A stretch of DNA of 32,092 nt. Origin: Clostridia bacterium. Lineage in GTDB: Bacteria > Bacillota_A > Clostridia > Christensenellales > Aristaeellaceae. Shown here piece by piece: positions 9,812 through 28,320 of this stretch (position 1 is the first letter of the stretch; every line of letters begins with the position of its first letter). A program made the position numbers and the translations under genes. The stretch lies in contig JAFUPT010000145.1 in NCBI GenBank assembly GCA_017481065.1, forward strand, positions 1 through 32,092. The letters are read 5' to 3'. The notes beneath the pieces are model-generated. The model was given only the letters and a program-made list of their open reading frames with translations, had not been told where the DNA came from and did no database searches.

Positions 9812-9989
9812 GGGAGGGGAGACGCCGGGGGTCCGCCAAAGGACGCTGTCCTTTGGGAACCTGCTTAAGGCTCCGCCTTAAGAATCCGCCAAGGGGGCAG
9901 CGCCCCTTGGAACCCTGCTCAGGAGACTCCGTCCCCTGAAACCCCTGCCAGGGGAAATGATTTCCCCTGGACCCCTCTGCATAAAAAAT

Positions 9990-10013
9990 ACCCCCGGAGC
10001 GGGGGTGTTTTTT
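9990..10013 (+). terminator. Rho-independent terminator after sbcC
   Basis: Stem ACCCCCG / CGGGGGT with loop GAG is followed by GTTTTTT. It sits at the centre of element E1. Confidence 0.85.
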
Positions 10014-10053
10014 GATTGGATCAAAAGGCACGAATTATGAGCCATAATAATCA

Positions 10054-10084
10054 AAATCCCTGTCCCGGAACGGGACAGGGATTT
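10054..10084. repeat. 14-bp perfect hairpin without a plus-strand T-run
   Basis: AAATCCCTGTCCCG (10054-10067) and its reverse complement (10071-10084) surround a GAA loop. No T-run follows on the plus strand; on the minus strand TTTGATTATT follows, so it may be a decayed or minus-strand terminator. It lies in the middle of element E1 next to the real terminator. Confidence 0.6.
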
Positions 10085-10192
10085 ATGCATGGGATTCTTA
10101 AGGGACAATGTCCCTTAAGCAGGGTGCAGGGACAGCGTCCCTGCCAGGGTCTGGGGCAGAGCCCCAGCGTCTCCCCACAGAAAGGAAATCGT

Positions 10193-10633
10193 ATGATCCG
10201 TAAAATCACCGAAAGCGACCGCGCGGCCTATCTCGCCATGGCCCGCGATTTCTATCATAGCCCGGCAGTGCTGCATGCGGTGCCGGATGAACATTTCGAG
10301 CGCTGCTTCCATGAAATGATGGCGGGCAGCCCCTATCTCGAGGGCCTGATCTTCGAGCAGGACGGCGCAATCGCCGGCTACGCGCTGCTGAGCAAAACCT
10401 ATTCCCAGGAGGCCGGTGGGCTGTGCGTATGGATCGAGGAGATCTATGTGCTCCCCGAGCTGCGCAAAAAAGGGCTCGGCAAGGCCTTCTTCCACGCCCT
10501 GCCCCGCATCATTCCCGCCGCCCGCTACCGCCTTGAAATCGAACCCGACAACACCCGCGCCGAGCGCCTCTACCGCAGCATGGGCTTTGAGCCGATGCTC
10601 TACCGGCAGCTGGTGATGGAGGGAAACGACTAG
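10193..10633 (+). CDS. GNAT-family N-acetyltransferase
   Basis: A 146-residue acetyltransferase with the GNAT fold. The acetyl-CoA pyrophosphate-binding loop is in VLPELRKKGLGKAFF near residues 87-101, preceded by the strand IEEIYVLP, and the C-terminal motif is LYRSMGF. The N-terminus MIRKITESDRAAYLAMARDFY is typical of small-molecule GNATs. The substrate is unknown. The start at 10193 follows AAAGGA with a 6-nt gap; the in-frame extension to 10016 reads through the repeat element and is not coding. The gene stands alone between two hairpin elements. Confidence 0.88.
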   Translation: MIRKITESDRAAYLAMARDFYHSPAVLHAVPDEHFERCFHEMMAGSPYLEGLIFEQDGAIAGYALLSKTYSQEAGGLCVWIEEIYVLPELRKKGLGKAFFHALPRIIPAARYRLEIEPDNTRAERLYRSMGFEPMLYRQLVMEGND

Positions 10634-10639
10634 GCTTGC

Positions 10640-10696
10640 GCCGGGAACTCTGTCCCCAACTCCCGGCAGGGTGCAGGAGACGGCATCCTCCATCCC
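10640..10696. repeat. Decayed hairpin-array element E2
   Basis: Between the GNAT gene and the MreB-like gene lies a degenerate version of the element: GCGCCGGGA, an imperfect GGGAACTCTGTCCCC stretch, the linker GCAGGGTGCAG, and an imperfect hairpin CAGGAGAC / ATCCTCC. Stems carry mismatches, suggesting an older copy. No T-run terminator is present. Confidence 0.5.
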
Positions 10697-10742
10697 CCCA
10701 ATTTGTCGAATTATTATCCAAGTTTATCCCCCATATGTATGC

Positions 10743-10761
10743 TATAATTGTACCATATAAT
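10743..10761 (+). promoter_or_regulatory. Two candidate -10 boxes before the MreB-like gene
   Basis: TATAAT occurs at 10743-10748 and again at 10756-10761, followed by the RBS GGGGAGG. No convincing -35 hexamer is found at the right distance for either, so the exact promoter is open. Confidence 0.4.
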
Positions 10762-10778
10762 CGGGGAGGTATGTCGGC

Positions 10779-11804
10779 ATGCGCTGGGACATCGGAATGG
10801 ACTTGGGCACGGAATTTGTGCGCACGGCGGAATACAAGCAGGGAGCGGCGCTGGAAACAGCGGCGAAACTGGCCCTGCGGGATGGCAGGGAAACGCCCAT
10901 CTGCTGCGGCGATGTGGCCGCGCGCATCGCGGGAAGAACCTGCGAGGGCGTGGAAGTGGTTTCCCCGCTGAAGGACGGCGTGCTGGAAAACAATTTCTAT
11001 GCCGACCGGCTGTTCCGTTGGATTTACAACCAGAGCGATGGCGTGGGCAAGGCCAAGCGCTTCGGCGCGATGATCACCTGCGCGCCCTTTGCCCGGCCCG
11101 TGCAGCAGGAGGCGATGCTCACCGCCGCAATGGATGCAGGCGCAGCCGAGGCCGCGCTGGTGCGCAGCGATGTGGCTGCGGCCGTGGGCGCGGGTCTGGA
11201 TCTGCATGCCCCGGAGGCCAAGCTGGTGGTGGATATCGGCGCGGGCAAGGTGACGGCCACGCTGTTTACCTTCGGCCGGATCGCCGCATTCGGATACCTG
11301 CCCTACGGCCTGAACCGCATCGATGAGCGTATTCAGCGCATCGTGCGCACCGAGGGCGGCTATCGCATCGGCATGGGCTCCGCCCGGGAGATCAAGCATA
11401 CCCTCGGCACCGCGCTCCCCGAAGCTGCGCCGAAGGACATCATCATGCATATGACGGGCTTTTCCCTGGAGCGGCGGCTCCCCGAAGCCTTCGATGTGGA
11501 AACCGCACCGGTGCTGCATGCCTGCGAGGAGGTTGTGCGGGAAATTGCCGGGCTCTGCGCCAATGTGGTGGCCGAAATTCCCGAGGAGCTCTCCGCCGAC
11601 CTGAACGACGCGGGCGCAACCCTGGTGGGCGGCGGCGCGGAGCTTACCGGGCTGGACAAGCGCATCGGCGATACGCTGGGCATTCCCTGCCGCATTGCAG
11701 ACGCACCCTCGAAATGCGCCGCGCGGGGACTGTTTGAAATCATGCGCGCGCCGGAGAAATATGAAAATGCCGTGCTGCGCCACGCCAGGAAGGGCGGCCG
11801 ATGA
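10779..11804 (+). CDS. Divergent MreB/Mbl-like actin-fold ATPase
   Basis: 341 residues, close to MreB length. Actin-family motifs are present in order: phosphate-1 DLGTEFVR (8-15), SPLKDGV, phosphate-2 VVDIGAGKVTATLF (about 150-163) and the adenosine motif VGGGAELTGLDKRIGDTLGIP, followed by SKCAARG, which matches the MreB TCVARG region. Compared with canonical MreB, phosphate-1 lacks the usual DLGTANT and phosphate-2 has GAGKV in place of GGGTT. It is not next to mreC or mreD. It overlaps a metalloprotease gene by 4 nt. A cytoskeletal or shape role is likely by family, but this looks like a specialised paralogue. I chose the ATG at 10779; the ATG at 10771 is out of frame. Confidence 0.8.
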   Translation: MRWDIGMDLGTEFVRTAEYKQGAALETAAKLALRDGRETPICCGDVAARIAGRTCEGVEVVSPLKDGVLENNFYADRLFRWIYNQSDGVGKAKRFGAMITCAPFARPVQQEAMLTAAMDAGAAEAALVRSDVAAAVGAGLDLHAPEAKLVVDIGAGKVTATLFTFGRIAAFGYLPYGLNRIDERIQRIVRTEGGYRIGMGSAREIKHTLGTALPEAAPKDIIMHMTGFSLERRLPEAFDVETAPVLHACEEVVREIAGLCANVVAEIPEELSADLNDAGATLVGGGAELTGLDKRIGDTLGIPCRIADAPSKCAARGLFEIMRAPEKYENAVLRHARKGGR

Positions 11805-12511
11805 AGCGAAGCGTTCTTTCCGGCGGCCAGCCGCTGGAATACATATTGATACAATCCAAGCGCAAGAGCGTGCTCATGCAGGCGCTGCCGGAGGGCGTTA
11901 CCAAGGTATACGCCCCGGCCTACATGCGCCTGAAGGACATCGACGCCATGGTGCGGAAGAAGATTCCCGAGCTGAAGCAGATGCACGAACGGCTGGACAA
12001 CGAACTGCGCCGCAGCCGGCTGGAGCACCCCGTTTCCCCGGGCAGCCGTATCTGCGTGGAGGGAAAGGGACTTCGGCTCATATTGGAAAAAGGCGAGCGC
12101 ATTTCCATGAAAATCGATGGAGAAAGCTGTATCCTGCGGCTGAAAGAGCCCGAAAACGAAGAAGCCGTGCGGCATGCGCTCAAGCAGGCGCTCTCCCGGC
12201 TGGCGCTCAGGCGCATCCGTGAAGAGCTGGGCAGCTATGCGCCGCGCATCGGCGTGGAATTCGGCCGGGTGGCCATCCGCGATCAGAAATCCCGCTGGGG
12301 CAGCTGCTCCGCCAAGCGCAACCTGAATTTCAATTGGAAGCTCATCATGGCGCCCCCGCAGGCGCTGGAATATGTGGTGATCCATGAGCTCTGCCACCTG
12401 ATCGAATTCAACCATTCCCCCCGCTTTTGGCGGCTCGTAGAGAGCCAGATGCCCGAATATGAAAGCTGGAAAAAATGGCTGAAAACCCACGGCAGCGAGC
12501 TGGGGGTGTAA
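11801..12511 (+). CDS. YgjP-like (DUF45) zinc metallopeptidase
   Basis: 236 residues. The C-terminal domain carries RWGSCSAKRNLNFNWKLIMAP followed by HELCHL (HExxH, first His at 195) and then FNHSPRFWRLV, the SprT/YgjP arrangement in which two histidines and a glutamate form a zinc site. The N-terminal 100 residues are the beta-rich part usual for YgjP relatives. The cellular substrate of this family is not well defined. Its ATG overlaps the stop of the MreB-like gene (ATGA), so the two are translationally coupled; whether the protease acts with the filament protein is inference. Confidence 0.88.
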   Translation: MKRSVLSGGQPLEYILIQSKRKSVLMQALPEGVTKVYAPAYMRLKDIDAMVRKKIPELKQMHERLDNELRRSRLEHPVSPGSRICVEGKGLRLILEKGERISMKIDGESCILRLKEPENEEAVRHALKQALSRLALRRIREELGSYAPRIGVEFGRVAIRDQKSRWGSCSAKRNLNFNWKLIMAPPQALEYVVIHELCHLIEFNHSPRFWRLVESQMPEYESWKKWLKTHGSELGV

Positions 12512-12515
12512 ATGG

Positions 12516-12687
12516 AACGCTAGGCATGCTTAGGGGACTGCGTCTCCTAAAAACCCTGCCCTGGACCCCTCGGCAATAAAAATCGATCCCGGAGCGGGAT
12601 CGATTTTTTGTATGGAAAAATTCTGCCTTATCTCTCCTTGCAGATTGTGCCGGGTCCGGGGGAGGGCCTCCCCCAACCCGTATATTT
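12516..12687. repeat. Composite hairpin-array element E3 (YgjP / HAD junction)
   Basis: This fills the first half of the 314-nt gap. Left half: GGAACGCTAGG bookend remnant, imperfect hairpin TTAGGGGAC / GTCTCCTAA, then CCCTGCC joined directly to CTGGACCCCTC, exactly where other copies carry the GGGGAAA hairpin. A terminator follows at 12578-12609. Right half in reverse: GTGCCGGGTCC, then a hairpin GGGGGAG / CTCCCCC with loop GGC (12658-12674). No coding potential is seen; the rest of the gap holds the HAD promoter and an inverted repeat. Confidence 0.7.
12578..12609. terminator. Rho-independent terminator after the YgjP-like gene
   Basis: Stem AAAAATCGATCCCG / CGGGATCGATTTTT (14 bp) with loop GAG. 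It belongs to the same sequence family as the terminators at 25322 and 28259, with paired substitutions in the stem. Confidence 0.88.
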
Positions 12688-12754
12688 CCCCCTCGCTTTT
12701 CTCATTTTCCTATCAAAAATGTGTCATGGAATTATCGGGCAAATATACGGGCAA
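12677..12754. promoter_or_regulatory. Inverted repeat and direct repeats upstream of the HAD-hprK operon
   Basis: CCCGTATATTT (12677-12687) is matched by its exact reverse complement AAATATACGGG (12741-12751), 53 nt apart. CGGGCAA also occurs twice on the same strand (12736-12742 and 12748-12754). The right arm lies just upstream of the promoter at 12772, a position suited to a regulator site. Which regulator is unknown. Confidence 0.4.
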
Positions 12755-12771
12755 TGTATGGCCCATATCAC

Positions 12772-12800
12772 TTGAAAGTCATAAGAAAATAATATAAAAT
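12772..12800 (+). promoter_or_regulatory. Promoter of the HAD-hprK-glcK-pepT operon
   Basis: TTGAAA (12772-12777), 17 nt and TAAAAT (12795-12800) lie 25 nt before the start codon at 12826. Confidence 0.6.
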
Positions 12801-12825
12801 GTAGGGTAGACTGAGGTGAAATGCG

Positions 12826-13638: not shown

Positions 13639-13642
13639 AGCC

Positions 13643-14581: not shown

Positions 14582-14585
14582 TTCC

Positions 14586-15539: not shown

Positions 15540-15541
15540 TT

Positions 15542-16744: not shown

Positions 16745-16810
16745 TGCGGGAACGGTCAGGGGACAGTGTCCCCGCCGTCTCCCTTCAGCGTCCCCCAACG
16801 TCTTCCCCAG
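16745..16810. repeat. Short hairpin element E4 (pepT / dapF junction)
   Basis: A GGAACGGTCA bookend, one perfect hairpin GGGGAC / GTCCCC with loop AGT (16759-16773), then CCGTCTCCC and ACGTCTTCCCC directly before the dapF RBS AGAAAGGAG. There is no T-run, so pepT transcripts can probably continue into dapF. Confidence 0.6.
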
Positions 16811-16822
16811 AAAGGAGAACTC

Positions 16823-17632: not shown

Positions 17633-17718
17633 GGGGAGACGTCAAGGGGAGAACGTTAGGGGACTCCGTTCCCTAAAACCCCTGCCAGGGGAAATCACTT
17701 CCCCTGGACCCCTCTGTA

Positions 17719-17750
17719 AAGGCATGCTTCGCATGCCTTGAATATTTTTT
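17719..17750 (+). terminator. Rho-independent terminator after dapF
   Basis: Stem AAGGCATGC / GCATGCCTT (9 bp) with loop TTC is followed by GAATATTTTTT. Confidence 0.7.
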
Positions 17751-17781
17751 GAACAACGCGCCGCCAAATGGCGCGTTGTTC
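17751..17781 (+). terminator. Second terminator-like hairpin before yabP
   Basis: Perfect 12-bp stem GAACAACGCGCC / GGCGCGTTGTTC with a 7-nt loop. It is followed only by GTTTG, so its T-run is weak. Confidence 0.5.
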
Positions 17782-17868
17782 GTTTGCGCCGGGTCCACTA
17801 AGCGCCTCCCCGTCATACCCCCGCCGGCCGCCGCATAAAATCCTGCAAACCATCCTGGAGGGGATTGC

Positions 17869-18503: not shown

Positions 18504-18571
18504 CAGGAATCCCCATGGAAATGTCGAAGTTTTTATCATCTATGTCTTTATCCGGGTATAAGGAGGCTCCC

Positions 18572-18850: not shown

Positions 18851-18862
18851 GAGGAACTTTGG

Positions 18863-20020
18863 ATGGGTCTGAAGGCCATCATAAAGCAGAATAAATGGAT
18901 TTACGCCGCAGCTAAATGCCTGCGGGCTTTGCCATATCCGTTTCTAAGGGGATATATGAAAATCTGCCGGGGAATGCGGGGCATTGATGGGAAAAAGGTG
19001 TATTTTTCCAGCTTCGGCGGCAAGCTGTACAATGAAAACCCGAAATATGTGTGCGAAGCACTGATGAAGGCCTGCCCGGAGGCGAAGATCATATTCCGGC
19101 TGAACAGGGCAGGCATGGCGCAGGAGCTGCCGGAGGAAATTATCAAGGTTCCGCAGAATTCCCCCGCCGCCCTCTTCCACATGGCGACGGCGAAGGTGAT
19201 CGTGAAAAACGCGGCGCTCCGACCGTGGATGGCGAAATCGAAGGAGCAGGTTTATATCCAGCTTTGGCACGGCGACCGGGGATTGAAAAAGATATTGCTG
19301 GACAAGGACCCGGCGGCGAACGTGCCGGACAGAAAACTGATGGACATCGGCGTTTCCGCATCCGAAATGGGAACGCAATGCTATATGCGCCGGGGCTTCG
19401 GCTTTGGCGGCGAAGTGCTGGAGTGCGGCTACCCGAAGAATGATATACTGGTGAACCCGCCTGCCGGGCTGGAAGCAAATATCCGGCGGGAGCTGGGCCT
19501 GGAGGGCAAGAAGATATTGCTCTATGCGCCCACCTTCCGGGATAAAACCAGCGGCAGCGCCCAGCAGGCGAATTTCAGCCTCGGGCGGCTGAAAAAAACG
19601 CTGGAGGAAGCCACCGGGGAGGAATGGGAGGTGCTCACCCGCGGGCACACGCTCAATACCGGGGTGAAGGCCGATGCGGGAAGGGATGTTTCCGCCTACC
19701 CGGACGTGAGCGAGCTTTTGCTGGCCACGGATATGCTGGTGACGGATTATTCCTCCATCTGCGGGGATTACATGATCCTGGAAAGGCCCATCATACTCTA
19801 CCACGCCGACCGGGGCCAATATGACCGGGAGCTGATCTTCGATCCGGAGAAATCGCCTTACAGGATCGCCCACAATGAGGAGGAGCTGACCGGCATCGCC
19901 GCCCGCTTCGGCGATGCTGCGGAAAATTGCCGCGCATTGGCCGGATTTTACGGCATGCGGGAGAGCGGCCGTGCCAGCGAAATTGTGGCCGGAAGAATCA
20001 AGGAGATCATTGAAGGATAA
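18863..20020 (+). CDS. CDP-alditol phosphotransferase, TagB/TagF family (1)
   Basis: 385 residues of the CDP-glycerol:poly(glycerophosphate) glycerophosphotransferase family. Recognisable parts are VYFSSFGGKLYNENPKYV, the catalytic-region YIQLWHGDRGLKKI, GYPKNDIL, LLYAPTFRD and the C-terminal VTDYSSICGDYMILERPIILY. These enzymes transfer alditol-phosphate units from CDP-glycerol or CDP-ribitol onto a growing teichoic-acid-like polymer at the cytoplasmic membrane. The length suits a primase-type TagB more than a long polymerase TagF. It lies 12 nt after divIC with its own RBS GAGGA, so it may be co-transcribed with the sporulation/division cluster. Confidence 0.88.
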   Translation: MGLKAIIKQNKWIYAAAKCLRALPYPFLRGYMKICRGMRGIDGKKVYFSSFGGKLYNENPKYVCEALMKACPEAKIIFRLNRAGMAQELPEEIIKVPQNSPAALFHMATAKVIVKNAALRPWMAKSKEQVYIQLWHGDRGLKKILLDKDPAANVPDRKLMDIGVSASEMGTQCYMRRGFGFGGEVLECGYPKNDILVNPPAGLEANIRRELGLEGKKILLYAPTFRDKTSGSAQQANFSLGRLKKTLEEATGEEWEVLTRGHTLNTGVKADAGRDVSAYPDVSELLLATDMLVTDYSSICGDYMILERPIILYHADRGQYDRELIFDPEKSPYRIAHNEEELTGIAARFGDAAENCRALAGFYGMRESGRASEIVAGRIKEIIEG

Positions 20021-20022
20021 CT

Positions 20023-21231
20023 ATGCTGAAGAAACTAAAGCAGGCGCTCAAGCGCAATCGAAAGCTGTATCTTGCCATTTCGCCGGTGTTCGGGCTCTAC
20101 CGAAACGCCGTGATGGGCTGCGCCCGCATTTTTAAGGGTTACGACGGCAGGCTCGCCGTGTTTTCCGCCTTTGACAGCCGATCCTACAACGATAACCCCC
20201 GCTACATCTCCGAGGCGCTGCATGAAATCTGCCCGGAGGCGAAGATCGTGTGGCTGTTCAGGGACGTTCAGAAAGCGAAGCGGGATTACGATATCCCGGA
20301 CTACATCACCTGCCTGAACGCCATCTCCCGGGAGGGCGTGAGCGCGCTGGCACGGGCGCGGATTGTGGTGGACAACTTCAACAAGCGCAGCTATATCAGG
20401 CTCAAATATCCCCAGCAGGTGTACATCCAGACCTGGCACGGCGACCGCGCCTTTAAGAAGGTGGGCTACGATAACCCCGGCCAATACAAGTATCTGATCG
20501 AGGAGCACGCCACGCTTTGCATATCCGGATCGGACTACGGGGACAGGCAGTTCCGCTCCGCCTTCCGCTACAAGGGCGAAATCATGAAGGTGGGCTATCC
20601 GAGGAACGACATCCTGCTGCGGAATGATCCCTCCGGGGCAGAAACCATCCGGGAAAGGCTCGGCATTTCCTCCGAAACGAAGCTGCTGATGTATGCTCCC
20701 ACCTTCCGGGATGTGGAGCAGCGGGCCCACCGGCCCCAGCAGGCGAGGTTTGACCTGCTGCATGTGCTGGATACGCTGGAGAGGAGCACCGGGGAGAAAT
20801 GGCAATGCCTGGTGCGCGCCCACTACATGAGCTACGGCATCCCTACCGACGATGCTTCCGGCAGGCTGGTGAACGTGAGCAGCTACCCCGAAATGGCGGA
20901 GCTTCTCAAAATTTCCGATGCGCTGATCACGGATTATTCCTCCTGCGCCGGGGATTTTGCCCTCACCCGCCGGCCCATCTGGCTCTACCAGGATGATATT
21001 GAGGATTACAAAAACAACAACCGCGCCCTCTACTTCGACATGGCGGAATCGCCCTACTGGGTGGCTTCCACGCCGGAGGAGATGGACGCGCTGATCCGGA
21101 ACACCACCCCGGAATCCGCCAAAGAGAACTGCGAAGCCATCCTTCGCTTCTACGGCGAGGCGGAGACCGGCCACGCCGCCAGATCCGTGGCGGAATACAT
21201 CGTCTCCAAGATGGAGAATGTCAAACCCTAA
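20023..21231 (+). CDS. CDP-alditol phosphotransferase, TagB/TagF family (2)
   Basis: 402 residues and a paralogue of the preceding protein, with the same landmarks: LAVFSAFDSRSYNDNPRYI, YIQTWHGDRAFKKVG, GYPRNDILL, LMYAPTFRD and ITDYSSCAGDFALTRRPIWLY. It starts 2 nt after the first copy ends. Two tandem enzymes could do primase and polymerase steps, or use two different CDP-alditols, as ribitol- and glycerol-phosphate enzymes do in other Bacillota; the sequence does not decide. Flanking CDP-activating genes support an alditol-phosphate polymer. Confidence 0.88.
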   Translation: MLKKLKQALKRNRKLYLAISPVFGLYRNAVMGCARIFKGYDGRLAVFSAFDSRSYNDNPRYISEALHEICPEAKIVWLFRDVQKAKRDYDIPDYITCLNAISREGVSALARARIVVDNFNKRSYIRLKYPQQVYIQTWHGDRAFKKVGYDNPGQYKYLIEEHATLCISGSDYGDRQFRSAFRYKGEIMKVGYPRNDILLRNDPSGAETIRERLGISSETKLLMYAPTFRDVEQRAHRPQQARFDLLHVLDTLERSTGEKWQCLVRAHYMSYGIPTDDASGRLVNVSSYPEMAELLKISDALITDYSSCAGDFALTRRPIWLYQDDIEDYKNNNRALYFDMAESPYWVASTPEEMDALIRNTTPESAKENCEAILRFYGEAETGHAARSVAEYIVSKMENVKP

Positions 21232-21241
21232 AATCCCACGA

Positions 21242-21292
21242 CAACCCCTCCGGCGCTTTGCGCCACCTCCCCTTGCACAGGGGAGGCGTGGA
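21242..21292. repeat. Interspersed repeat-like double hairpin, gut-Firmicutes type
   Basis: Two hairpins lie in the 107-nt gap: GGCGC / GCGCC with loop TTT, and CCTCCCC / GGGGAGG with loop TTGCACA, followed by CGTGGATCAA. This resembles a CTCCGG...CCACCTCCCC repeat that I recall from many gut Firmicutes. It is a different type from elements E1-E8. Confidence 0.5.
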
Positions 21293-21338
21293 TCAAACCC
21301 CATCCTTATCATTTACCCCTTCTATCGGAGGAAAAAGC

Positions 21339-22478
21339 ATGAAACCCATCCAGACCGCCGTTGTGATCGGCGGAACCAGCGGCATCGGGCGCTCCATCGC
21401 CCGGGCGCTGGCAGGGCTCGGCGCGCAGGTGACCGCCTACGGCCGCAGCCTTCCCGAAAATGAGCCGGGCATTGAATACCGCCGTCTGAACCTGCTGAGC
21501 GATGATCTGGGCTGCCTGCGGGAGCACATCTCCTGCGGCGCGCTCATCTATGCCGCGGGGCTCGGCCGCATCGCGCCCTTTGACCAGCTCAGCGATATGG
21601 AAATCACCACCGCCTTCCGCACCAATGCCGAGGGCTTTGCCCGCGTGCTGCACATCTTCCGGGAGCGCCTCTACGGAGAAGAGGATTTCCACATCGCGGT
21701 GCTGGGCAGCATTGCGGGGCTCGTTTCATCGCCCATGTTTGCGGCATACGCGGCGGGCAAGGCGGCTGTGGCGCGGCTGTGCGAATCGGTAAATGCCGAG
21801 CTCGCCGCCGCCGGAAAGCCGAACCGCGTATTGCACATCGCTCCCGGGATGATCGAGGGCACCGGCTTCTACGGAAAGCCCGACGAACCCGAAAAGACCC
21901 GGGCGCTGGCGGAGGAGATACTCCGCCGGATGCTCAACCGTGAAACCCTGTGGATTCCCAAATACGAAGAAACCTACCGCGCGGTGATCGAGCGCTACCA
22001 CGCCGATCCCGATGCCTTCGGCGCGGACAGCTGCCGCTACAAAATGGAAAGCGGCCGCGCTTCGGACAAACCCCGGGGCAAGATCGGCTTCCTCAGCGGC
22101 ACCTTCGATCTCTTCCACATCGGCCACCTGAACCTGATTCGCCGGGCCAAGCAATACTGCGATTACCTGATCGTGGGCGTGCATCCCCCGGGATCGAGCC
22201 ACAAGAACAAGCCCACCTTCATTCCCCTCGAGGAGCGCATGGCGATACTTGAGAGCGTGAAATATGTGGACAAGGTGGTTGTAACCCTCGATGAGGACGA
22301 TGATATGTACAAGCTCTACCCCTATGATTTCCTCTTTGTCGGCAGCGATTACAAGGGAACCGAGCGCTTCAACCGCTACGAGGCGGAGCTGACCCCGCTG
22401 GGCGTAAAAATCATCTACTTCCCCTACACCCAGGGCACCAGCTCCACCCAGCTGCGGGAGGCTTTGCTCCGCAAATAA
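21339..22478 (+). CDS. Fusion of SDR dehydrogenase and TagD-type cytidylyltransferase
   Basis: 379 residues with two domains. Residues 1-235 are a short-chain dehydrogenase: cofactor loop GGTSGIG near the N-terminus, Ser124, Tyr137 and Lys141 in exact S-x12-Y-x3-K spacing. Residues 246-379 are a glycerol-3-phosphate cytidylyltransferase-like domain: GTFDLFHIGH (HxGH at 260-263), DYLIVGV, GSDYKG and QGTSSTQLRE, the equivalent of the TagD ISTT motif. The dehydrogenase could reduce a sugar phosphate to an alditol phosphate and the transferase activate it with CTP. A related logic is known in Haemophilus Bcs1/Acs1, where an SDR is fused to an IspD-like domain instead. The start at 21339 follows GGAGGA; a frame extension to 21258 enters the repeat. 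Confidence 0.88.
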   Translation: MKPIQTAVVIGGTSGIGRSIARALAGLGAQVTAYGRSLPENEPGIEYRRLNLLSDDLGCLREHISCGALIYAAGLGRIAPFDQLSDMEITTAFRTNAEGFARVLHIFRERLYGEEDFHIAVLGSIAGLVSSPMFAAYAAGKAAVARLCESVNAELAAAGKPNRVLHIAPGMIEGTGFYGKPDEPEKTRALAEEILRRMLNRETLWIPKYEETYRAVIERYHADPDAFGADSCRYKMESGRASDKPRGKIGFLSGTFDLFHIGHLNLIRRAKQYCDYLIVGVHPPGSSHKNKPTFIPLEERMAILESVKYVDKVVVTLDEDDDMYKLYPYDFLFVGSDYKGTERFNRYEAELTPLGVKIIYFPYTQGTSSTQLREALLRK

Positions 22479-22490
22479 GGAGGTTTCGCC

Positions 22491-23204
22491 ATGAATATTG
22501 CTCTGATCATTGCCGGCGGCAAGGGCGTGCGCATGCAGCAGGAGGTGCCCAAGCAGTTCCTGACCGTGAACGAAAAGCCGGTGATCGCCTATACGCTGGA
22601 GGCCTTCCAGCGCCACGCCGATATCGACGCCATCGCCGTGGTTTGCATTGCGGGCTGGGAAAGCATACTCTCCGCCTACGCCCGGGAATACGGCATTTCC
22701 AAGCTCAGGCACATCATCCCCGGCGGGGACTGCGGCCAGGCTTCCATCCGCAACGGCGTGTTTGAACTGGAAAAGCACTATGGCAGGGACGACCTGGTTC
22801 TCGTGCACGATGCGATAAGGCCCATGGTTTCCGCAGAAATCATTTCCGACTGCATCGCCACCGCCACCCAGCACGGCTCCGCCATCGCAGTGATTCCCTG
22901 CCAGGAGGCCATGCTGGTGACCGGCGACCAATTATCCACCAATTCTTCCTTCCCACGCGCGAACCTGCGCCGCACCCAGACCCCGCAGGGCTTTCCCATC
23001 GGAACCCTGGCCGACGCCCACCGCGAGGCGCTGGAAAAGGGAATCACCAAGTCCATCGCTTCCTGCACGCTGATGGTGGAGCTGGGAAGAACCATATTCT
23101 TCTCCCACGGCTCCGAAAAGAACCTGAAGCTCACCACCCCCGAGGATATTGACATCTTCAAGGCACTGCTGGCGGTAAGAGACGTTCAGGGGCGCTGCCC
23201 CTGA
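22491..23204 (+). CDS. IspD/TarI-like cytidylyltransferase
   Basis: 237 residues with the IspD/TarI fold: IIAGGKGVRMQQEVPKQFL at the N-terminus, VLVHDAIRPMVS, RRTQTPQGFP and LTTPEDIDIF. Homologues activate either methylerythritol phosphate (IspD) or ribitol-5-phosphate (TarI). Its place directly after the SDR fusion and before LicD favours ribitol-5-phosphate activation for a cell-surface polymer, though IspD activity cannot be excluded. The ATG at 22491 has an AAGGAGG site. The last codons (VQGRCP) and the stop lie inside the first hairpin of element E6, so the repeat defines its C-terminus. Confidence 0.88.
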   Translation: MNIALIIAGGKGVRMQQEVPKQFLTVNEKPVIAYTLEAFQRHADIDAIAVVCIAGWESILSAYAREYGISKLRHIIPGGDCGQASIRNGVFELEKHYGRDDLVLVHDAIRPMVSAEIISDCIATATQHGSAIAVIPCQEAMLVTGDQLSTNSSFPRANLRRTQTPQGFPIGTLADAHREALEKGITKSIASCTLMVELGRTIFFSHGSEKNLKLTTPEDIDIFKALLAVRDVQGRCP

Positions 23205-23385
23205 AACCCCGCCAGGGGGCGCGCCGCCCCCTGGACCCGGCACAAATGAAAAACGCGCCATTCGGCGGCGCGTTTTTCAAAAAATTATTCAGGCACGCGT
23301 ATGCGTGCCTTTCAGAGGGGTCCAGGGGAAATCATTTCCCCTGGCAGGGTTTCCAAAGGGACAGCGTCCCTTTGGCAGCCCCCCA
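23178..23385. repeat. Composite hairpin-array element E6 (IspD-like / licD junction)
   Basis: Left: AGAGACG bookend in coding sequence, hairpin TTCAGGGGC / GCCCCTGAA (23185-23205, loop GCT) and hairpin CCAGGGGGCG / CGCCCCCTGG (23212-23234, loop CGC), then GGACCCGGCAC. Centre: terminator 23248-23278 and hairpin AGGCACGC / GCGTGCCT (23291-23310). Right, in reverse: CAGAGGGGTCC, hairpin CCAGGGGAAA / TTTCCCCTGG (23322-23344, loop TCA), linker CAGGGTTT, and hairpin CCAAAGGGAC / GTCCCTTTGG (23353-23375, loop AGC), then CAGCCCCCC before the licD RBS. All stems are perfect. Confidence 0.85.
23248..23278. terminator. Terminator after the IspD-like gene
   Basis: Stem GAAAAACGCGCC / GGCGCGTTTTTC with a 7-nt loop; A- and T-rich ends allow termination in both directions. 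Confidence 0.8.
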
Positions 23386-23401
23386 GAAAGGATAAACTCC
23401 C

Positions 23402-24193
23402 ATGTCCAACCTCACCACGCGCGAAATCCAGCTGAGCTGTCTGGAAGTGCTGAAAGAATTTGACGCACTGTGCAAAGCAAACCGGCTTACATATTTCCTG
23501 TCGGGCGGCACGCTGCTGGGGGCGATCCGGCACAAGGGCTTCATCCCGTGGGACGACGACGTAGATGTAATGATGCCGCGTGCGGATTACGAGCGGCTGC
23601 TTTCGTTGAAAAACCCCCGCGTTTACAGCGTGGAGGGCGGCAATTACGGCCGGCCATGGGCGCGGATGGCGGATGAAGGCACCCGCCGCAGCTCCGAAGC
23701 CCTGTTTACGGAGGACACCAGCGGCACATACATCGATATCTTCCCCATCGACGGCGTGCCGGAGGGGAAACTTGCCGCCAAGCTGTTTTACCGCCGCATA
23801 CGGCTCTATGATATGCTGTGGCGCACGGCCATGCGCAATTCCATCGGCGAAAAGGAGCGGATGCGGGCGCTCAAGAAGATCGCCGCCGCGCTGCTCAGGC
23901 CCATCGGCCCGAGGCCCTTTGCCCGGCGGATGAACAAAATTGCCATGGCGCAGGATTACGGCGGCAAATACCGCGGCGTTTCGATGATCACCCACTACGA
24001 CGCCCGGGAAAAGATGCCTGCCGGGGTATTTGACCACGCAGTGGAAGTGGATTTCGAGGGCCTGCGCCTTCCCGCGCCCTGCGGATATGATGCATACCTG
24101 ACCCGGCTCTACGGGGATTACATGGTTCTGCCGCCGGAGCACCGGCGCGCAACCCACAATGCCAGCTACCAGAAATCGGAGGCTAACGAATGA
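23402..24193 (+). CDS. LicD-family phosphotransferase
   Basis: 263 residues. The LicD signature is clear at residues 36-56: GTLLGAIRHKGFIPWDDDVD, with the metal-binding acidic cluster, followed by TYIDIFPIDGVPEG. LicD enzymes transfer phosphocholine or ribitol/alditol phosphate from a CDP-donor to surface glycans; the eukaryotic fukutin family is related. No choline uptake or kinase genes are in the window, so an alditol phosphate from the neighbouring cytidylyltransferases is the more economical donor (inference). The start at 23402 follows AGAAAGGA, the same leader as dapF and the GNAT gene. Its stop overlaps the next start (ATGA). Confidence 0.9.
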   Translation: MSNLTTREIQLSCLEVLKEFDALCKANRLTYFLSGGTLLGAIRHKGFIPWDDDVDVMMPRADYERLLSLKNPRVYSVEGGNYGRPWARMADEGTRRSSEALFTEDTSGTYIDIFPIDGVPEGKLAAKLFYRRIRLYDMLWRTAMRNSIGEKERMRALKKIAAALLRPIGPRPFARRMNKIAMAQDYGGKYRGVSMITHYDAREKMPAGVFDHAVEVDFEGLRLPAPCGYDAYLTRLYGDYMVLPPEHRRATHNASYQKSEANE

Positions 24194-25173
24194 AGGCGGA
24201 GGACAATCTGTTTCAGCGGGAGGCGGAGAAATTTGCCGCGCTGGATTTGCCCTGGGAGAAGCTGCGGGGCAAGGCCATTGCCATCACCGGGGCTACCGGG
24301 CTGATTGGCGGGAGCCTGCTGCGCTACCTGCGGGCCGCAAACGAAATCCGCGCTCTGGACCTGCGGCTCATCCCCCTGTGCCGGAAGCCGGATAGGCTGC
24401 CGGGCGCGGTTTTTTACGATGCGCTCGGGGAATTGCCGGAATTTGAGGCGGATTATATCATCCACGCGGCCTCCAACGCCCACCCGCTGGCCTTTTCCAG
24501 CGATCCCGTGGGCACGATGCAGGCCAACCTGCTGGGCACGATGCGCCTTCTGGAGCGCATTCGGGAACGGGGCGGGCGGCTGGTATTCTGCTCCACCGGG
24601 GAGATTTACGGCGAAAATCCCGCGCTGGACAGCTTTGACGAGGCTGCCTTCGGCGCGATTGATCCCATGCGCGCGCGTTCCTGCTATCCTGAGAGCAAGC
24701 GCGCCGGAGAGACGCTCTGCGCGGCCTACCATGCGCAATACGGCGTGGATGCGCTGGCGGCGCGGCTCTGCTATGTTTACGGGCCGGGGATCACTCCCGA
24801 GAACAGCCGGGCGGACGCGCAATTCCTGCGCAAAGCCCGGTCCGGGGAGGATATTGTGCTCAAGAGCCCGGGCAGCCAGCTGCGCTCCTACTGCTATGTT
24901 TTTGACGCGGCCTCCGCGCTGCTGACCCTGATGCTCCGGGGCGAGGCCGGGCAGGCCTACAATGTTTCCGGCAGCACCGCCAGCATACGGGAATACGCCG
25001 AAACCCTGGCCGCTCTCGCGGGCGTTTCCCTGCGCTTTGAGCTGCCTCCGGATGCCGAGAAGCAGGGCTATTCCGCCGTGACCCGCGCGGTGCTCGACAG
25101 CGGCAAGCTGCAGGCGCTGGGCTGGAAGGCGGAGTACGGCCTTGAAGAAGGCTTAAAGAGAACGCTGGGGTGA
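24190..25173 (+). CDS. NAD-dependent sugar epimerase/dehydratase (extended SDR)
   Basis: 327 residues. An N-terminal extension of about 28 residues precedes the Rossmann glycine motif GATGLIG (34-40). STGEIYG supplies the catalytic serine region, and CYPESKRAGE gives the Tyr166/Lys170 pair; LCYVYGPG and the C-terminal substrate region follow. It resembles UDP-glucuronate decarboxylases and dTDP-glucose dehydratases most, acting on a nucleotide sugar or possibly a CDP-linked substrate; the exact reaction is not clear. It is coupled to licD by a 4-nt overlap. Its stop lies in the degenerate first hairpin of element E7. Confidence 0.85.
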   Translation: MKAEDNLFQREAEKFAALDLPWEKLRGKAIAITGATGLIGGSLLRYLRAANEIRALDLRLIPLCRKPDRLPGAVFYDALGELPEFEADYIIHAASNAHPLAFSSDPVGTMQANLLGTMRLLERIRERGGRLVFCSTGEIYGENPALDSFDEAAFGAIDPMRARSCYPESKRAGETLCAAYHAQYGVDALAARLCYVYGPGITPENSRADAQFLRKARSGEDIVLKSPGSQLRSYCYVFDAASALLTLMLRGEAGQAYNVSGSTASIREYAETLAALAGVSLRFELPPDAEKQGYSAVTRAVLDSGKLQALGWKAEYGLEEGLKRTLG

Positions 25174-25280
25174 CGCTGCCCCGGAACCAAGCCAAGGGGC
25201 GCTGTCCCTGCACCCTGCTCAAGGCTCTGCCTTGAGAATCCGCCAGGGGGAGAGCCTCCCCTTGGACCCCGGCACAAAGC

Positions 25281-25307
25281 AAATCGGCCTCGTTCCGAGA
25301 CCGATTT
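25281..25307. terminator. Hairpin in the centre of element E7
   Basis: Stem AAATCGGCCTCG / CGAGACCGATTT with one mismatch and loop TTC, followed by GAATAATAAAT. Terminator-like, but the T-run is short. Confidence 0.5.
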
Positions 25308-25321
25308 GAATAATAAATATC

Positions 25322-25354
25322 AAAAAATCGACCCCGCTCCGGGGTCGATTTTTT
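25322..25354. terminator. Bidirectional terminator between epimerase and SH3b genes
   Basis: Perfect 15-bp stem AAAAAATCGACCCCG / CGGGGTCGATTTTTT with loop CTC, usable from both strands. Its stem core is identical to the terminator at 28259. Confidence 0.92.
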
Positions 25355-25433
25355 ATTCAGAGGGTTCCAAGGGGAATCATTCCCCTTGGCGGGGGTGTGG
25401 GGGCAGAGCCCCCACCGTTCTCCCCCTCACCCG

Positions 25434-27491
25434 TCAGTCGTACAGATCGGCGTAGCGGGAGGAGACCCAGCCGGTGACGCCCTGGTATTCAATCTTGTAC
25501 CAGACGACGCCGCGGGAATCCTTCTTGGACTTGCCGAGGTATTCGGCGGTTTTGCCTTCCTTGATCACGCCGAGGCGGGTGCTGTCCTTATTGGCCTTGG
25601 CGCGGATGGAGCAATCGCCGCCCACGATGCGCACGCGCTCTGCGGTGGATTCGCCGCCGGAGGAAGTGGAGCCATCGTTGGTGGGCTGCGCATACTGGGA
25701 GGAAACCCAGCCGGTAACGCCATCATACTTCACCTTGTACCACTTCACGCCGCGGGAATCGGTCTTGGCCACGCCGAGGCTGGTGGCGACGCCGCCGCTG
25801 GGAATGGTGCCCTTGGAGGCGCTATCCTTGGAGGCGCTGGCGCGGATATTCACCTTGCCGCCCACGATGCGGATATACTTTGCGCTCACATCGGTGGTGG
25901 TGCCGGTGGGGGTATCATTACCGGAGGAGGAAGAGGAGGTCTGCTTGGCATAATCGGCATAGATCCAGCCGGTGGAGCCATTGTATTCCACCTTGTACCA
26001 CTTGGAGCCGTTGGAATACTTGGCATACTTGCCCGCGCATTCCACGACGGCGCCCTCGGGGATGACGGCCTTCTTGGAGGAGGAGGCCTTGGGCTCGGAG
26101 CGCATATTTACATCTCCGGTGATCTTGAGATAATCAATGGAGGTATTGTAAATGGCCGGGCCGGAGGAAGAAGAGGAGGAACCGGAGGAGGAAGAGCTGC
26201 CGGAGCCGGTGGCAGTGCCCGTGCCGCTGCCCCAGTTGGGATTCACGGTGGCTACGGGCGCCGGGGTGGGCGTGGCATAGCCAATGGGCGTGGCCTGGGG
26301 CCTGGTGGAACCGCCGGAGGAGCTGGAGCCGCCGTTTTCAGCCGCTTCCTGGTTCTTCATGAAGTTTTCAAACCAATCGCTGGAAGCCTGCACGGCTTCG
26401 CTGGTGGGAGCGACGGTTGCGGTGGGCTCCACGCTCGGCAGCGGAGTGGTGAGGGCCACATCGGTGGCCAGCGCCAGATTGCCGGTGTAGAGCACGGTGG
26501 CGGTTCCGGTGGAGCGGACCTCGGTGAGGGTGAGCTTGGTGGGCTCCCAGACATAGAGGGTTTCGCCATCGGAAGCGACGGTGGAGCCGTTTTCGGGGGC
26601 GTAGAGGGAGATCGCGCCGGCTTCGCTTTCGAGGTTCAGCGCGCCCTCATACCATGCGACCACGCCGGCGGGCAGCGCCCAGAAGCCGGAATCCGGCTCG
26701 GCGCACTCGCTCTCGAGGGTCTTGAGCTGCACATCCAGGCTGTAAACGCGGCCCTTCAGGACGGCGCTTTCGCTGGTGCGCACGGCATATGCATCCGCAA
26801 GGTTATGGAAGTAGAGCTTCTGGTCGAGGATGGAGATATCCTCGCCGCCGCTCTTGAGCAGCAGATCGCTCTCACCGGTGTTCAGATCCAGGCGGTAGAC
26901 GCAGCCGGCCTGGGCGGTGGCGGTTTCCCCATCGTTGAGCTCGGCGGAATATTCCATCTGATCGCCGCCAGCGAGGTAATAGGCATAGCCCTCGCCCACG
27001 ACATAATCCAGCATCTGCGCGCCGGAGAGCTTGAGGCATACTGCGGTATCCGGCTCAACGGAATGGAGCAGGCCATCCATGAGCACCATCAGCTTGCCGC
27101 CGTAATAGGTCATGCAGGAAGCCTGGGCTGCGCCGAAGGAATACAGGCTGGAAACCTGGGCGCCGGAGCAGCTCATGATGGCGGAGGAGCCGCCGGTGGT
27201 CTTCAAATAGACCAGGCCGCCGCCGTAGTTGATAAGATCATCGATGGTATCCGCCCGGTCCATGCAGGTGGGCGCGGAGCCATCGAAGGGAACGCGCACC
27301 AGCATTTCGCCTGCGCCGGAGGGGATAACCATGTAAAGCTCATTGGCGGTGCGTACAGCATCCATGCCGTTGAGGGCAGTGACGGATACGGCCGCGGTGG
27401 TGGTCTGGGCAGGCTGCACCAGCTGCTCCGCACCGGCGACGCCGGAGAGCGCCATCAGCGCGACCAGAACCCATACGATAACCTTGCGCAT
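25434..27491 (-). CDS. Secreted protein with propeller-like region and three C-terminal SH3b domains
   Basis: 685 residues. The N-terminus MRKVIVWVLVALMALSGVAGA is a Sec signal peptide. Residues 30-330 form repeated short beta-strand units with WEP, LYF and YRLD motifs, suggestive of a DUF5050-like propeller. A low-complexity Ser/Gly/Thr/Pro linker covers about 345-450. Three bacterial SH3 domains follow (about 458-530, 537-605 and 617-685); the last two share RIVGG..IRA, SKG or RLG, DSRGV-WYK and GVTGWVSS. SH3b domains usually bind peptidoglycan, so the protein probably sits in the cell wall. No catalytic domain or sortase signal is seen. An AAGGAGG site precedes the ATG at 27491. Confidence 0.88.
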   Translation of the reverse strand: MRKVIVWVLVALMALSGVAGAEQLVQPAQTTTAAVSVTALNGMDAVRTANELYMVIPSGAGEMLVRVPFDGSAPTCMDRADTIDDLINYGGGLVYLKTTGGSSAIMSCSGAQVSSLYSFGAAQASCMTYYGGKLMVLMDGLLHSVEPDTAVCLKLSGAQMLDYVVGEGYAYYLAGGDQMEYSAELNDGETATAQAGCVYRLDLNTGESDLLLKSGGEDISILDQKLYFHNLADAYAVRTSESAVLKGRVYSLDVQLKTLESECAEPDSGFWALPAGVVAWYEGALNLESEAGAISLYAPENGSTVASDGETLYVWEPTKLTLTEVRSTGTATVLYTGNLALATDVALTTPLPSVEPTATVAPTSEAVQASSDWFENFMKNQEAAENGGSSSSGGSTRPQATPIGYATPTPAPVATVNPNWGSGTGTATGSGSSSSSGSSSSSSGPAIYNTSIDYLKITGDVNMRSEPKASSSKKAVIPEGAVVECAGKYAKYSNGSKWYKVEYNGSTGWIYADYAKQTSSSSSGNDTPTGTTTDVSAKYIRIVGGKVNIRASASKDSASKGTIPSGGVATSLGVAKTDSRGVKWYKVKYDGVTGWVSSQYAQPTNDGSTSSGGESTAERVRIVGGDCSIRAKANKDSTRLGVIKEGKTAEYLGKSKKDSRGVVWYKIEYQGVTGWVSSRYADLYD

Positions 27492-27521
27492 AAAAAAATT
27501 CCTCCTTAGTATTACCCTTTC

Positions 27522-27550
27522 ATTATAGCATATTCCCCAGCGAAACTCAA
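27522..27550 (-). promoter_or_regulatory. Promoter of the SH3b gene
   Basis: On the minus strand TTGAGT (27545-27550), 17 nt and TATAAT (27522-27527) lie 31 nt before the ATG at 27491. Confidence 0.7.
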
Positions 27551-27621
27551 CTATTATACTTTTAGACGGGAAAAACTTCCGTTTCGTTGCGGAAAATGCC
27601 GGGCAAAAATTGGTTTTTTCA

Positions 27622-27650
27622 TTGCATTTGGGCCCGGAGTTTGATATAAT
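27622..27650 (+). promoter_or_regulatory. Promoter of the 180-residue unknown gene
   Basis: TTGCAT (27622-27627), 17 nt and a perfect TATAAT (27645-27650) lie 36 nt before the ATG at 27686. Confidence 0.7.
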
Positions 27651-27685
27651 ACATAAAATTAATCCTAACGAATGGAGGGCGGAGC

Positions 27686-28228
27686 ATGCCTTTATTTGAT
27701 CGTGACGCCGAAGCCCTGCGCAAGCAGAATTTGAAGATCATGGAGGACAAGCGCCTCCGCTTTGCCGGGGAATTGCAGGACATGGGCTTTAATCCTGAAA
27801 AAATGCTGTATTGCTCCAGCGAGGAGGGCAGCTTTGTGGCCCTTGCGCGCTGGAATAACCGGGTGGCTGTAATCGTATCCCCCGCTTTCGGCAAGGAGGG
27901 CGAATTCCGCCTCGAGCTGCATGAAAAGCTGCCTTACGAAAAGGAAGATGTCTATGAAAAGGGCACCGGCCTGAACGGCGCATTCGGCTTCGGCAAGAAG
28001 GGCGCCAAGGGCTTTAAGCTGAACATCTCCCTGCGCAGCGGCGATGTGGTTTCCCTGGATGTGGTTGCAGGCCGCACTTCCTGGATGGAATGCAAGGGCA
28101 AGAAAAATCCCCTGCTCTCCACCAAGCGCCGCCGCGGCGACGCCAACCTGATCTGGGATTTGATGCCCATTGAGCCCGGCCACCTGGCCAAGATTGAAAA
28201 TGCGCTGGCAACGTATTATCTGGCGTAA
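27686..28228 (+). CDS. Conserved-looking protein of unknown function
   Basis: 180 residues, no family recognised. It has a charged N-terminal helix (residues 1-33), then a beta-rich region with FVALARWNNRVAVIVSPAF and FRLELHEKLPYEKEDVYEKG, a glycine-rich stretch GAFGFGKKGAKG near 98-109, and KLNISLRSGDVVSLDVVAGRTSWMECKGKKNP. There is no signal peptide or membrane helix, so it is probably cytoplasmic. It has its own strong promoter, a GGAGGGCGGAG ribosome site and a terminator shared with tadA. The pattern of alternating strands could be a PH-like domain, but I cannot support that. Confidence 0.8.
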   Translation: MPLFDRDAEALRKQNLKIMEDKRLRFAGELQDMGFNPEKMLYCSSEEGSFVALARWNNRVAVIVSPAFGKEGEFRLELHEKLPYEKEDVYEKGTGLNGAFGFGKKGAKGFKLNISLRSGDVVSLDVVAGRTSWMECKGKKNPLLSTKRRRGDANLIWDLMPIEPGHLAKIENALATYYLA

Positions 28229-28258
28229 TCGGGGAGGCTGGATTTCTCCCCTTTTATC

Positions 28259-28291
28259 AAAAATCGACCCCGCTTCGGGGTCGATTTTTTT
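28259..28291. terminator. Bidirectional terminator between the unknown gene and tadA
   Basis: Stem AAAAATCGACCCCG / CGGGGTCGATTTTT with loop CTT and a T-run of seven. Nearly identical to the terminator at 25322. Confidence 0.92.
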
Positions 28292-28296
28292 GCGTA

Positions 28297-28320
28297 TGGG
28301 TTCATGGGGAATCATTCCCC
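28297..28320. repeat. Half element E8 with the tadA stop codon in its loop
   Basis: To the right of the terminator lie GGGTTC and one perfect hairpin GGGGAA / TTCCCC (28306-28320). The 3-nt loop (28312-28314) is, on the minus strand, TGA: the tadA stop codon. Confidence 0.7.

What the first reader, a model, noticed from the sequence alone, without database searches (positions are those of the whole stretch)
9816..28320. Ordered family of composite hairpin-array elements at most gene junctions
At least eight junctions (9816, 10640, 12516, 16745, 17633, 23178, 25158, 28297) carry the same architecture: stop codon, bookend GGGGAGA(A)CG, a series of 7-10 bp hairpins with mostly 3-nt loops joined by linkers of the type GAACCCTGC, inner motif GGACCCCTCTG or GGACCCGGCAC, a central terminator, then the same parts in reverse complement up to the next gene. 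Stem sequences differ between hairpins (CCAAAGGAC, CTTAAGGC, CCAGGGGAAA, TTCAGGGGC, GTGGGGGC) yet stay perfectly paired, which implies selection on structure or a copying process. I know of no assigned function. RNA 3'-end protection, protein binding, or REP-like mobile DNA are possible.
Basis: seen in the sequence. Interest (0 to 1): 0.78.

Follow-up and report, generated by a model that had tools for sequence, protein, structure and literature searches.

The report
Hairpin-ended repeats between bacterial genes
Gaps between genes in this Clostridia-type bacterium hold short, insertion-like DNA repeats built from well-paired hairpins; many related genomes carry them too, and they look like a new REP-like class of small mobile DNA.

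Summary
The hairpin arrays are real: 46 perfect hairpins in the window against 9-15 in 5 shuffles, and three elements fold with z -9.6 to -13.8. Five of the eight junctions parse as arrays; three are remnants. Relatives show the unit: outer hairpin HP1, linker ACCC(C/T)G, inner hairpin HP2 with TGA loop, then ACCC. Two units face each other around a core, in the window terminator-like. An HP2 model matches in 114 of 308 genomes of one bacterial family, 66 with at least 5 matches. Elements are present, absent or inverted at orthologous junctions of sister species, once exactly at a stop codon. Among sites picked without using pairing and not chosen by a hairpin search, 38 of 41 HP2 stems pair perfectly, with 15 distinct arm pairs and no G-T pair. 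Y1/RAYT transposases are not associated with the repeats (44 of 114 against 83 of 194, P 0.55). Best reading: REPIN/BIME-like non-autonomous mobile palindromes with an unidentified mobilising enzyme, a class not found in the seven paper searches made.

The parts
9813..10182 (.). Element E1, between sbcC and a GNAT gene: left arm of five hairpins, core, right arm of three hairpins, bounded by GGGGAGACG and CGTCTCCCC
   Evidence: fold z -13.75
9836..9979 (+). E1 left arm; innermost HP2 CCAGGGGAAA-TGA-TTTCCCCTGG at 9948-9970, followed by ACCCCTCTG
   Evidence: R1 match 61.8 bits (this site is in the model's training set)
9990..10084 (.). E1 core: two terminator-like hairpins (9990-10006, 10054-10084)
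   Evidence: consensus scan only
10091..10167 (-). E1 right arm; innermost hairpin CTTAAGGGAC-ATT-GTCCCTTAAG followed by AATCCC, an end type also seen in genome G003
10634..10700 (.). E2: degenerate hairpin remnants between the GNAT and MreB-like genes
   Evidence: no clean array stem
12512..12680 (.). E3: one left hairpin, truncated HP2 (CCCTGGACCCCTCGG), terminator-like hairpin 12578-12608, right hairpin 12658-12674 with ACCCGGCAC end
16745..16790 (+). E4: single degenerate hairpin between pepT and dapF
17633..17816 (.). E5: HP1, HP2 (17685-17707, loop ATCAC), two core hairpins, right end reduced to GGACCCGGCGC
23176..23402 (.). E6: left hairpins 23185-23205 (holds the stop codon of the ispD-like ORF) and 23212-23234; two core hairpins; right HP2 23322-23344 and HP1 23353-23375
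   Evidence: fold z -9.63
25150..25432 (.). E7: junction with a reverse-strand gene; eroded left hairpins, then 25218-25236 and 25243-25265; terminator-like 25322-25354; right HP2 25367-25389 and HP1 25397-25415
   Evidence: fold z -9.72
28225..28340 (.). E8: terminator-like hairpin 28259-28289 plus one HP2 remnant GGGGAA-TGA-TTCCCC

Best explanation
The arrays are copies, some nested and some decayed, of a family of non-autonomous, insertion-type palindromic elements. Each end is a twin-hairpin unit: HP1, a linker ACCC(C/T)G, HP2 with loop TGA, then ACCC. In the usual form two ends face each other around a core, so HP1 is outermost and lies next to a gene. Shown: many copies per genome, two-ended layout, whole-length similarity between copies, presence/absence between sister species, near-perfect pairing of changing HP2 stems. 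Inferred: an enzyme recognises the ends as single-stranded DNA hairpins with the TGA loop and GGGT/ACCC foot, much as REP and IS200/IS605 hairpins are thought to be recognised, and moves the element to sites near stop codons where insertion is tolerated; the longer arms in the window arose by tandem copying or nested insertion. Once in place the terminator-like cores of the window copies probably end transcription in both directions.
For: Same unit across genomes: the HP2 model R1 matches in 114 of 308 genomes of G003's family at E<=0.01 (about 3 expected by chance at that cut), 66 genomes with at least 5, although only 21 candidates per genome were scored; 22, 29, 35, 48 and 65 matches in five genomes with 150 candidates scored. 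A zero-mismatch pattern found 9 of 308 genomes; its reversed control was 0 in every row shown. Facing ends: 24 pairs under 600 bp, 13 of them 380-394 bp (the shortest, 44 bp, is probably an overlap artefact). Ten whole elements from four sister genomes are 65-88% identical. Contigs break at copies: of 62 hits in regions I picked, 14 lie within 600 bp of the contig's far end, 1.94 expected. Insertion: G221 carries about 445 bp where G154 has 1 (alignment blocks), exactly at the upstream gene's stop codon, and HP1 supplies a new stop 9 codons on (frames read). G138 carries 475 bp against 8 in G009, between the dnaN stop and a terminator-like hairpin. After dnaN, G222 and G231 have elements in opposite orientation and G221 has none. 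Pairing: of 89 sites picked on the 5' half only, after removing every site that a hairpin search had chosen, 38 pair perfectly, 3 have one mismatch, none has 2-3 and 48 have 4 or more (chance); no G-T among 364 pairs, 15 distinct arm pairs. Of 22 units not chosen by R1, 20 have a TGA loop in HP2. HP1 lies upstream of HP2 in 131 of 152 sites and a hairpin lies downstream in 15 of 150 (set that includes chosen sites).
Against: No mobilising enzyme was found: Y1 is not associated, and IS110, TnpB and DDE_Tnp_1 reach their cut-offs in 1, 0 and 7 of 11 carrier genomes. No consistent target-site duplication: none evident in the G221 case; a possible 5-bp GTGTT in G138 is one of several short chance repeats there. 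Sequence just outside HP1 is variable (CGT in 52 of 149 units). One fetched pair (L276) has the units back to back, HP1 inside. Presence/absence could come from deletion or replacement of the gap, and at some junctions different palindromes replace each other. The window's own genome is not held, so its copies were never tested for mobility.
Confidence: 0.6

Rival explanations
1. RNA elements: tandem hairpins plus terminators form protected 3' ends of mRNAs, kept by selection on RNA structure, and spread only by ordinary duplication.
For: In the same-strand cases the outer hairpin often starts just after a stop codon (17 of 41 lie 7-24 nt after it); window cores are terminator-like; stems pair; two window hairpins have a G-T pair on the strand of the upstream gene.
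Against: 30 of 71 units abut the 5' end of an antisense gene. No G-T among 364 HP2 pairs, and in HP1 the single non-Watson-Crick pairs are 3 G-T or T-G, 9 A-C or C-A and 5 others, so no sign of G-U tolerance on the canonical strand; RNA helices normally tolerate G-U (recalled). Use of both strands as RNA would weaken this. Elements also sit inside tight operons.
Confidence: 0.22
2. Replication template switching makes and keeps the stems perfect, so pairing needs no selection; the repeats are by-products of that process.
For: Perfect pairing with no intermediates and no wobble in HP2 is what copying one arm from the other would give; the process is described for RNA hairpins (PMC8794818, abstract and start of the introduction seen).
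Against: It does not explain the TGA loop (20 of 22 unchosen units), the linkers, the two-ended layout or the shared cores. It may act together with mobility.
Confidence: 0.12
3. True RAYT-mobilised REP/REPIN elements whose RAYT gene is merely missed in incomplete assemblies.
For: Layout, inverted doublets, position next to 3' ends and stop-codon supply match REP descriptions.
Against: Y1_Tnp in 44 of 114 repeat-bearing and 83 of 194 other genomes, P 0.55; 7 of 9 genomes with the zero-mismatch motif lack it; no GTAG tag among the 25 commonest. No unit in the flanks of 20 fetched Y1 loci, but only 3 of these lie in genomes of that set of 9.
Confidence: 0.06

Closest known systems
REPINs (REP doublets forming hairpins), PMC3116915 (passages seen)
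   Same: Two inverted palindromic ends around a spacer, extragenic, many copies, ordered clusters, singlets seen as remnants
   Different: Each end here is a double hairpin with an ACCC linker and TGA loop, and stem sequence varies widely; no RAYT association
BIMEs (bacterial interspersed mosaic elements), PMC2817692 (passages seen)
   Same: Composite arrays with palindromes in both orientations; palindromes preserved through complementary changes
   Different: Here linkers and HP2 loop are more constant than the stems; terminator-like hairpins lie in the window cores; found in Clostridia assemblies; no linked rayt found
CGTC-tagged REPs, PMC3733652 (sections seen; abstract)
   Same: No dedicated transposase known; head-to-head dimers; next to 3' ends of ORFs
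   Different: CGTC REPs have A-T in the first two stem positions, loops of 4-5 and a CCA-type tail; here stems are G-rich with 3-nt HP2 loops, and the outer tag reads CGT in 52 of 149 units but CGTC in only 5
Miniature inverted-repeat elements (MITEs), recalled as a class
   Same: Short, non-coding, inverted ends, insertion polymorphism
   Different: Ends are hairpin pairs, not a fixed terminal inverted repeat; no regular target duplication seen

Membership tests
REP/REPIN (RAYT type) | Short extragenic palindromes in high copy | tested here: met
   22-65 HP2 matches per genome in five genomes, 150 candidates scored; 114 of 308 genomes with a match. REPs are usually put at over 100 copies (PMC2817692 abstract); that level was not shown here
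REP/REPIN (RAYT type) | Inverted doublets as the repeated unit | tested here: met
   24 facing pairs under 600 bp; ten whole elements 65-88% identical
REP/REPIN (RAYT type) | Presence and abundance go with a RAYT (Y1 transposase) gene | tested here: not met
   44 of 114 against 83 of 194, Fisher P 0.55; also no link at >=5, >=10 or >=15 matches. Assemblies may be incomplete, and Y1_Tnp also covers IS200/IS605 transposases
REP/REPIN (RAYT type) | RAYT gene flanked by the cognate palindromes | tested here: inconclusive
   No unit in the short flanks of 20 fetched Y1 loci, but most lie in genomes with few or no repeats
GTAG or CGTC REP super-families | Unpaired GTAG or CGTC tag at one foot, with family stem and loop lengths | tested here: not met
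   Outer tag CGTC in 5 of 149 units and GTAG not among the 25 commonest tags; HP2 loop 3 nt
MITE | Terminal inverted repeats and target-site duplication | tested here: inconclusive
   Inverted ends yes; duplication not evident in one clean case, only a possible 5 bp in the other
Known Rfam RNA families | Match at gathering score | tested here: not met
   None at gathering score in the window; only matches below gathering score in the window and 12 related loci

The most novel reading that the evidence does not exclude
A third REP-like super-family, GGGT/ACCC-footed twin hairpins with a TGA loop, moved in trans by an enzyme that is neither a Y1/RAYT transposase nor any of the three other transposase families tested, and acting on single-stranded hairpin DNA.
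Probability: 0.3. Interest if true: 0.7.

Novelty: new variant of a known kind. Interest (0 to 1): 0.52.

Why it matters
The two REP super-families described in PMC3733652 lie mostly in Proteobacteria, and the GTAG one is tied to RAYT transposases. A two-ended, hairpin-built repeat family in Clostridia without an evident Y1 partner would show that hairpin-end mobility arose or persists another way, and would help explain why gene gaps, operon joints and assemblies of these poorly cultured bacteria vary. The near absence of wobble pairs in HP2 makes 'DNA hairpin or RNA hairpin?' directly testable.

Tried and rejected
Phage or plasmid origin: one phage-collection hit covering 25% of an E6 query, to a metagenome scaffold labelled phage whose reading frames look bacterial to me; none in plasmids for E1 (26) or for a G222 element, and none in phages for the latter. 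Two exact-pattern scans of viral contigs (16 and 33 stretches) gave scattered hits, not arrays of this kind. Known RNA family: none. RAYT partner: not supported. Autonomous partner: IS110, TnpB and DDE_Tnp_1 searched in 11 genomes; among the fetched transposase loci a unit lies only near one sub-cut-off IS110-like match. A gene-bearing element in L244: the frame between two units has no Pfam match and looks antisense to me. The first alignment of window hairpin pairs (A1) was misplaced in the arms and not used for a model. My first unbiased pairing count (47 of 51 perfect) still held some sites that a hairpin search had chosen; removes them (38 of 41) and is the one used. An earlier, larger set includes chosen sites. 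Literature: seven searches, the last for literal motif sequences, showed no description of this repeat in their listings; the library lacks most subscription journals. Papers seen: outlines with abstracts of PMC12306157, PMC3733652, PMC2267715, PMC8794818; Discussion part 1 and the distribution and CGTC sections of PMC3733652; searched passages of PMC8040213, PMC3733652, PMC12306157, PMC3116915, PMC2817692; the rest as search listings only.

Full report
What is in the window. The arrays are real. A scan for perfect hairpins (stem at least 7, loop 3-8) gives 46 in the window, against 9-15 in five Markov shuffles, and three elements folded as DNA beat all their shuffles (z -13.75, -9.63, -9.72). 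Parsed in one orientation they follow one grammar: GGGGAGACG, hairpin, AACCCTG, hairpin..., inner hairpin, ACCCCTCTG, core; the far side repeats it in reverse complement. The best copy is 9813-10182. Five of the eight named junctions parse as arrays, three of them (9813, 23176, 25150) with hairpins on both sides; 10634, 16745 and 28225 hold remnants. The core is asymmetric: the inner ends read ACCCCTCTG or a close variant on one side and ACCCGGCAC, AATCCC or a close variant on the other in E1, E3, E5, E6 and E7. At 23176 and 25158 the reading frame stops inside the first hairpin. Three array hairpins have one non-Watson-Crick pair.

Relatives. The window's genome is not held. Of ten genomes compared by SbcC the closest is G003 at 61% identity (contig JAUNNK010000014.1), and it stays closest among 150 genomes of its family. 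A zero-mismatch pattern for the inner hairpin gave 9 of 308 genomes of that family, with the reversed control 0 in every row shown. A covariance model of that hairpin (R1, 14 sequences) gave a match in 114 of 308 genomes at E<=0.01, where about 3 are expected by chance, and 66 genomes have 5 or more. Only 21 candidates per genome were scored there; with 150 scored, five genomes gave 22, 29, 35, 48 and 65 matches. In 73 loci of other Clostridia found through PepT, 3-21 kb each, R1 found nothing. I did not check whether those loci lie in the same family, save for a few, and so short a sample of each genome says little about how lineage-bound the repeat is. One hit outside is L140, a human-gut scaffold filed as phage.

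The unit. Sixty fetched regions contain 73 units of the form HP1, linker, HP2, A(A)CC-type foot; 51 were at sites that R1 had chosen and 22 were not. HP2 has loop TGA in 71 of 73 and in 20 of the 22 unchosen ones. Units come in facing pairs: 24 distinct pairs under 600 bp, 13 of them 380-394 bp. One pair, in L276, is back to back. G003 has full copies with ends like window E1. Ten whole elements from four sister genomes are 65-88% identical to each other (the limits of one of them, G154b, were inferred from a neighbouring alignment).

Pairing. To avoid circularity I picked sites on the 5' half only (linker, 5' arm, TGA) and dropped every site that a hairpin search had chosen: 89 sites, of which 38 pair perfectly, 3 have one mismatch (two A-A at the foot, an arm-length effect, and one T-T), none has two or three, and 48 have four or more and are chance. 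The 41 real sites have 15 distinct arm pairs and no G-T or T-G among 364 pairs. The loci themselves were mostly fetched because they hold some unit. HP1 is less strict: of 165 perfect TGA hairpins, 148 have an HP1 with at most one internal non-Watson-Crick pair, 131 of them perfect; the 17 others are 3 G-T or T-G, 9 A-C or C-A, and 5 other. RNA helices normally tolerate G-U (recalled), so this favours a constraint on DNA hairpins, or copying of one arm from the other, over an RNA role of the canonical strand. If the other strand or both were used as RNA, the argument would weaken; the A-C pairs would be G-U there.

Mobility. Using dnaN from G222 as anchor, 25 of 29 genomes of its genus matched. 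After dnaN, G222 has an element, G231 one in the opposite orientation, G221 a 9-bp gap. At the next junction G231 and G222 have elements of about 380-400 bp, G221 a shorter one, and G154 and G229 two unrelated-looking palindromes. Two comparisons are clean: G221 against G154 (about 445 bp against 1; alignment blocks, letters in 87), with the insert exactly at the stop codon of the upstream gene and a new stop supplied by HP1 (frames read); and G138 against G009 (475 against 8), with the insert between the dnaN stop and a terminator-like hairpin. No regular target duplication appears. Contigs end near copies more often than expected (14 of 62 picked hits within 600 bp of the far contig end, 1.94 expected), as high-copy similar repeats would cause.

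Position. With a simple longest-ORF caller, 71 of 78 units had a neighbour on the outer side: 41 a same-strand gene 3' end and 30 an antisense gene 5' end (five window units included); 17 of the 41 start 7-24 nt after the stop. This resembles what is reported for REPs, which sit close to 3' ends and often supply stop codons (PMC3733652).

Enzyme. Y1_Tnp is in 127 of 308 genomes and is not associated with the repeats (44 of 114 against 83 of 194, P 0.55; lists typed from the outputs). Twenty fetched Y1 loci carry no unit in their flanks, but most lie in genomes with few or no repeats. IS110, TnpB and DDE_Tnp_1 families reach their cut-offs in 1, 0 and 7 of 11 carrier genomes. Assemblies may be incomplete, so absence is weak for any one genome.

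Verdict. The thing works like a REPIN or BIME but does not meet the tested features of RAYT association or of the GTAG/CGTC tags. I file it as a new variant of a known kind: non-autonomous hairpin-ended repeats with an unknown mover, probably acting also as terminators where their cores are terminator-like. Steps shown: structure, spread, layout, presence/absence. Steps inferred: recognition as single-stranded DNA, trans mobilisation, nesting as the origin of long arms, termination in vivo.

Noticed in passing
L335:11566-11698 (G154), L345:2044-2240 (G229), L298:1669-1858 (G231): Other palindromic repeats (GTAGGAGGTAGGAAG-type and GAGTACAGAGTTCAGAG-type, by eye) fill junctions where sister genomes carry the hairpin element, so several repeat families may compete for the same gaps.
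   Followed up: partly
L251:4154-4372, L245, L244, L284: Cores in one genus contain a large nested hairpin (GCTTCTGGCCC ... GGGCCAGAAGC) found in either orientation inside the element; it may be a separate repeat module.
   Followed up: no
L051:5353-5505, L054:11273-11356, L043:11229-11316: Loci labelled Oscillospiraceae or Avoscillospira carry another tandem hairpin array with mostly CGCA or TGCA loops and AAATCCCC-type linkers, like this grammar but different in sequence.
   Followed up: no
L140 (MT839842.1): A record filed as Bacteriophage sp. from human feces has bacterial-looking reading frames (cysteine synthase-like, sugar kinase-like, by eye) and carries the hairpin array; it is probably a chromosomal fragment.
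   Followed up: partly
window 18863-25173: A teichoic-acid or ribitol-phosphate type cluster (TarF-like, cytidylyltransferase-like and cholinephosphotransferase-like matches, most below NCBIfam cut-offs) is interrupted by element E6 and ends at E7.
   Followed up: no
L155-L174, downstream of HP2: A possible third helix (GCGG..CCGC, ACCGG..CCGGT, ATTGG..CCAAT) with a 40-50 nt loop follows the two hairpins by eye; RNAalifold did not predict it.
   Followed up: partly
L101 around 5006: A viral contig has three GC-rich hairpins, two with ACCCC feet, similar in style to the unit.
   Followed up: no
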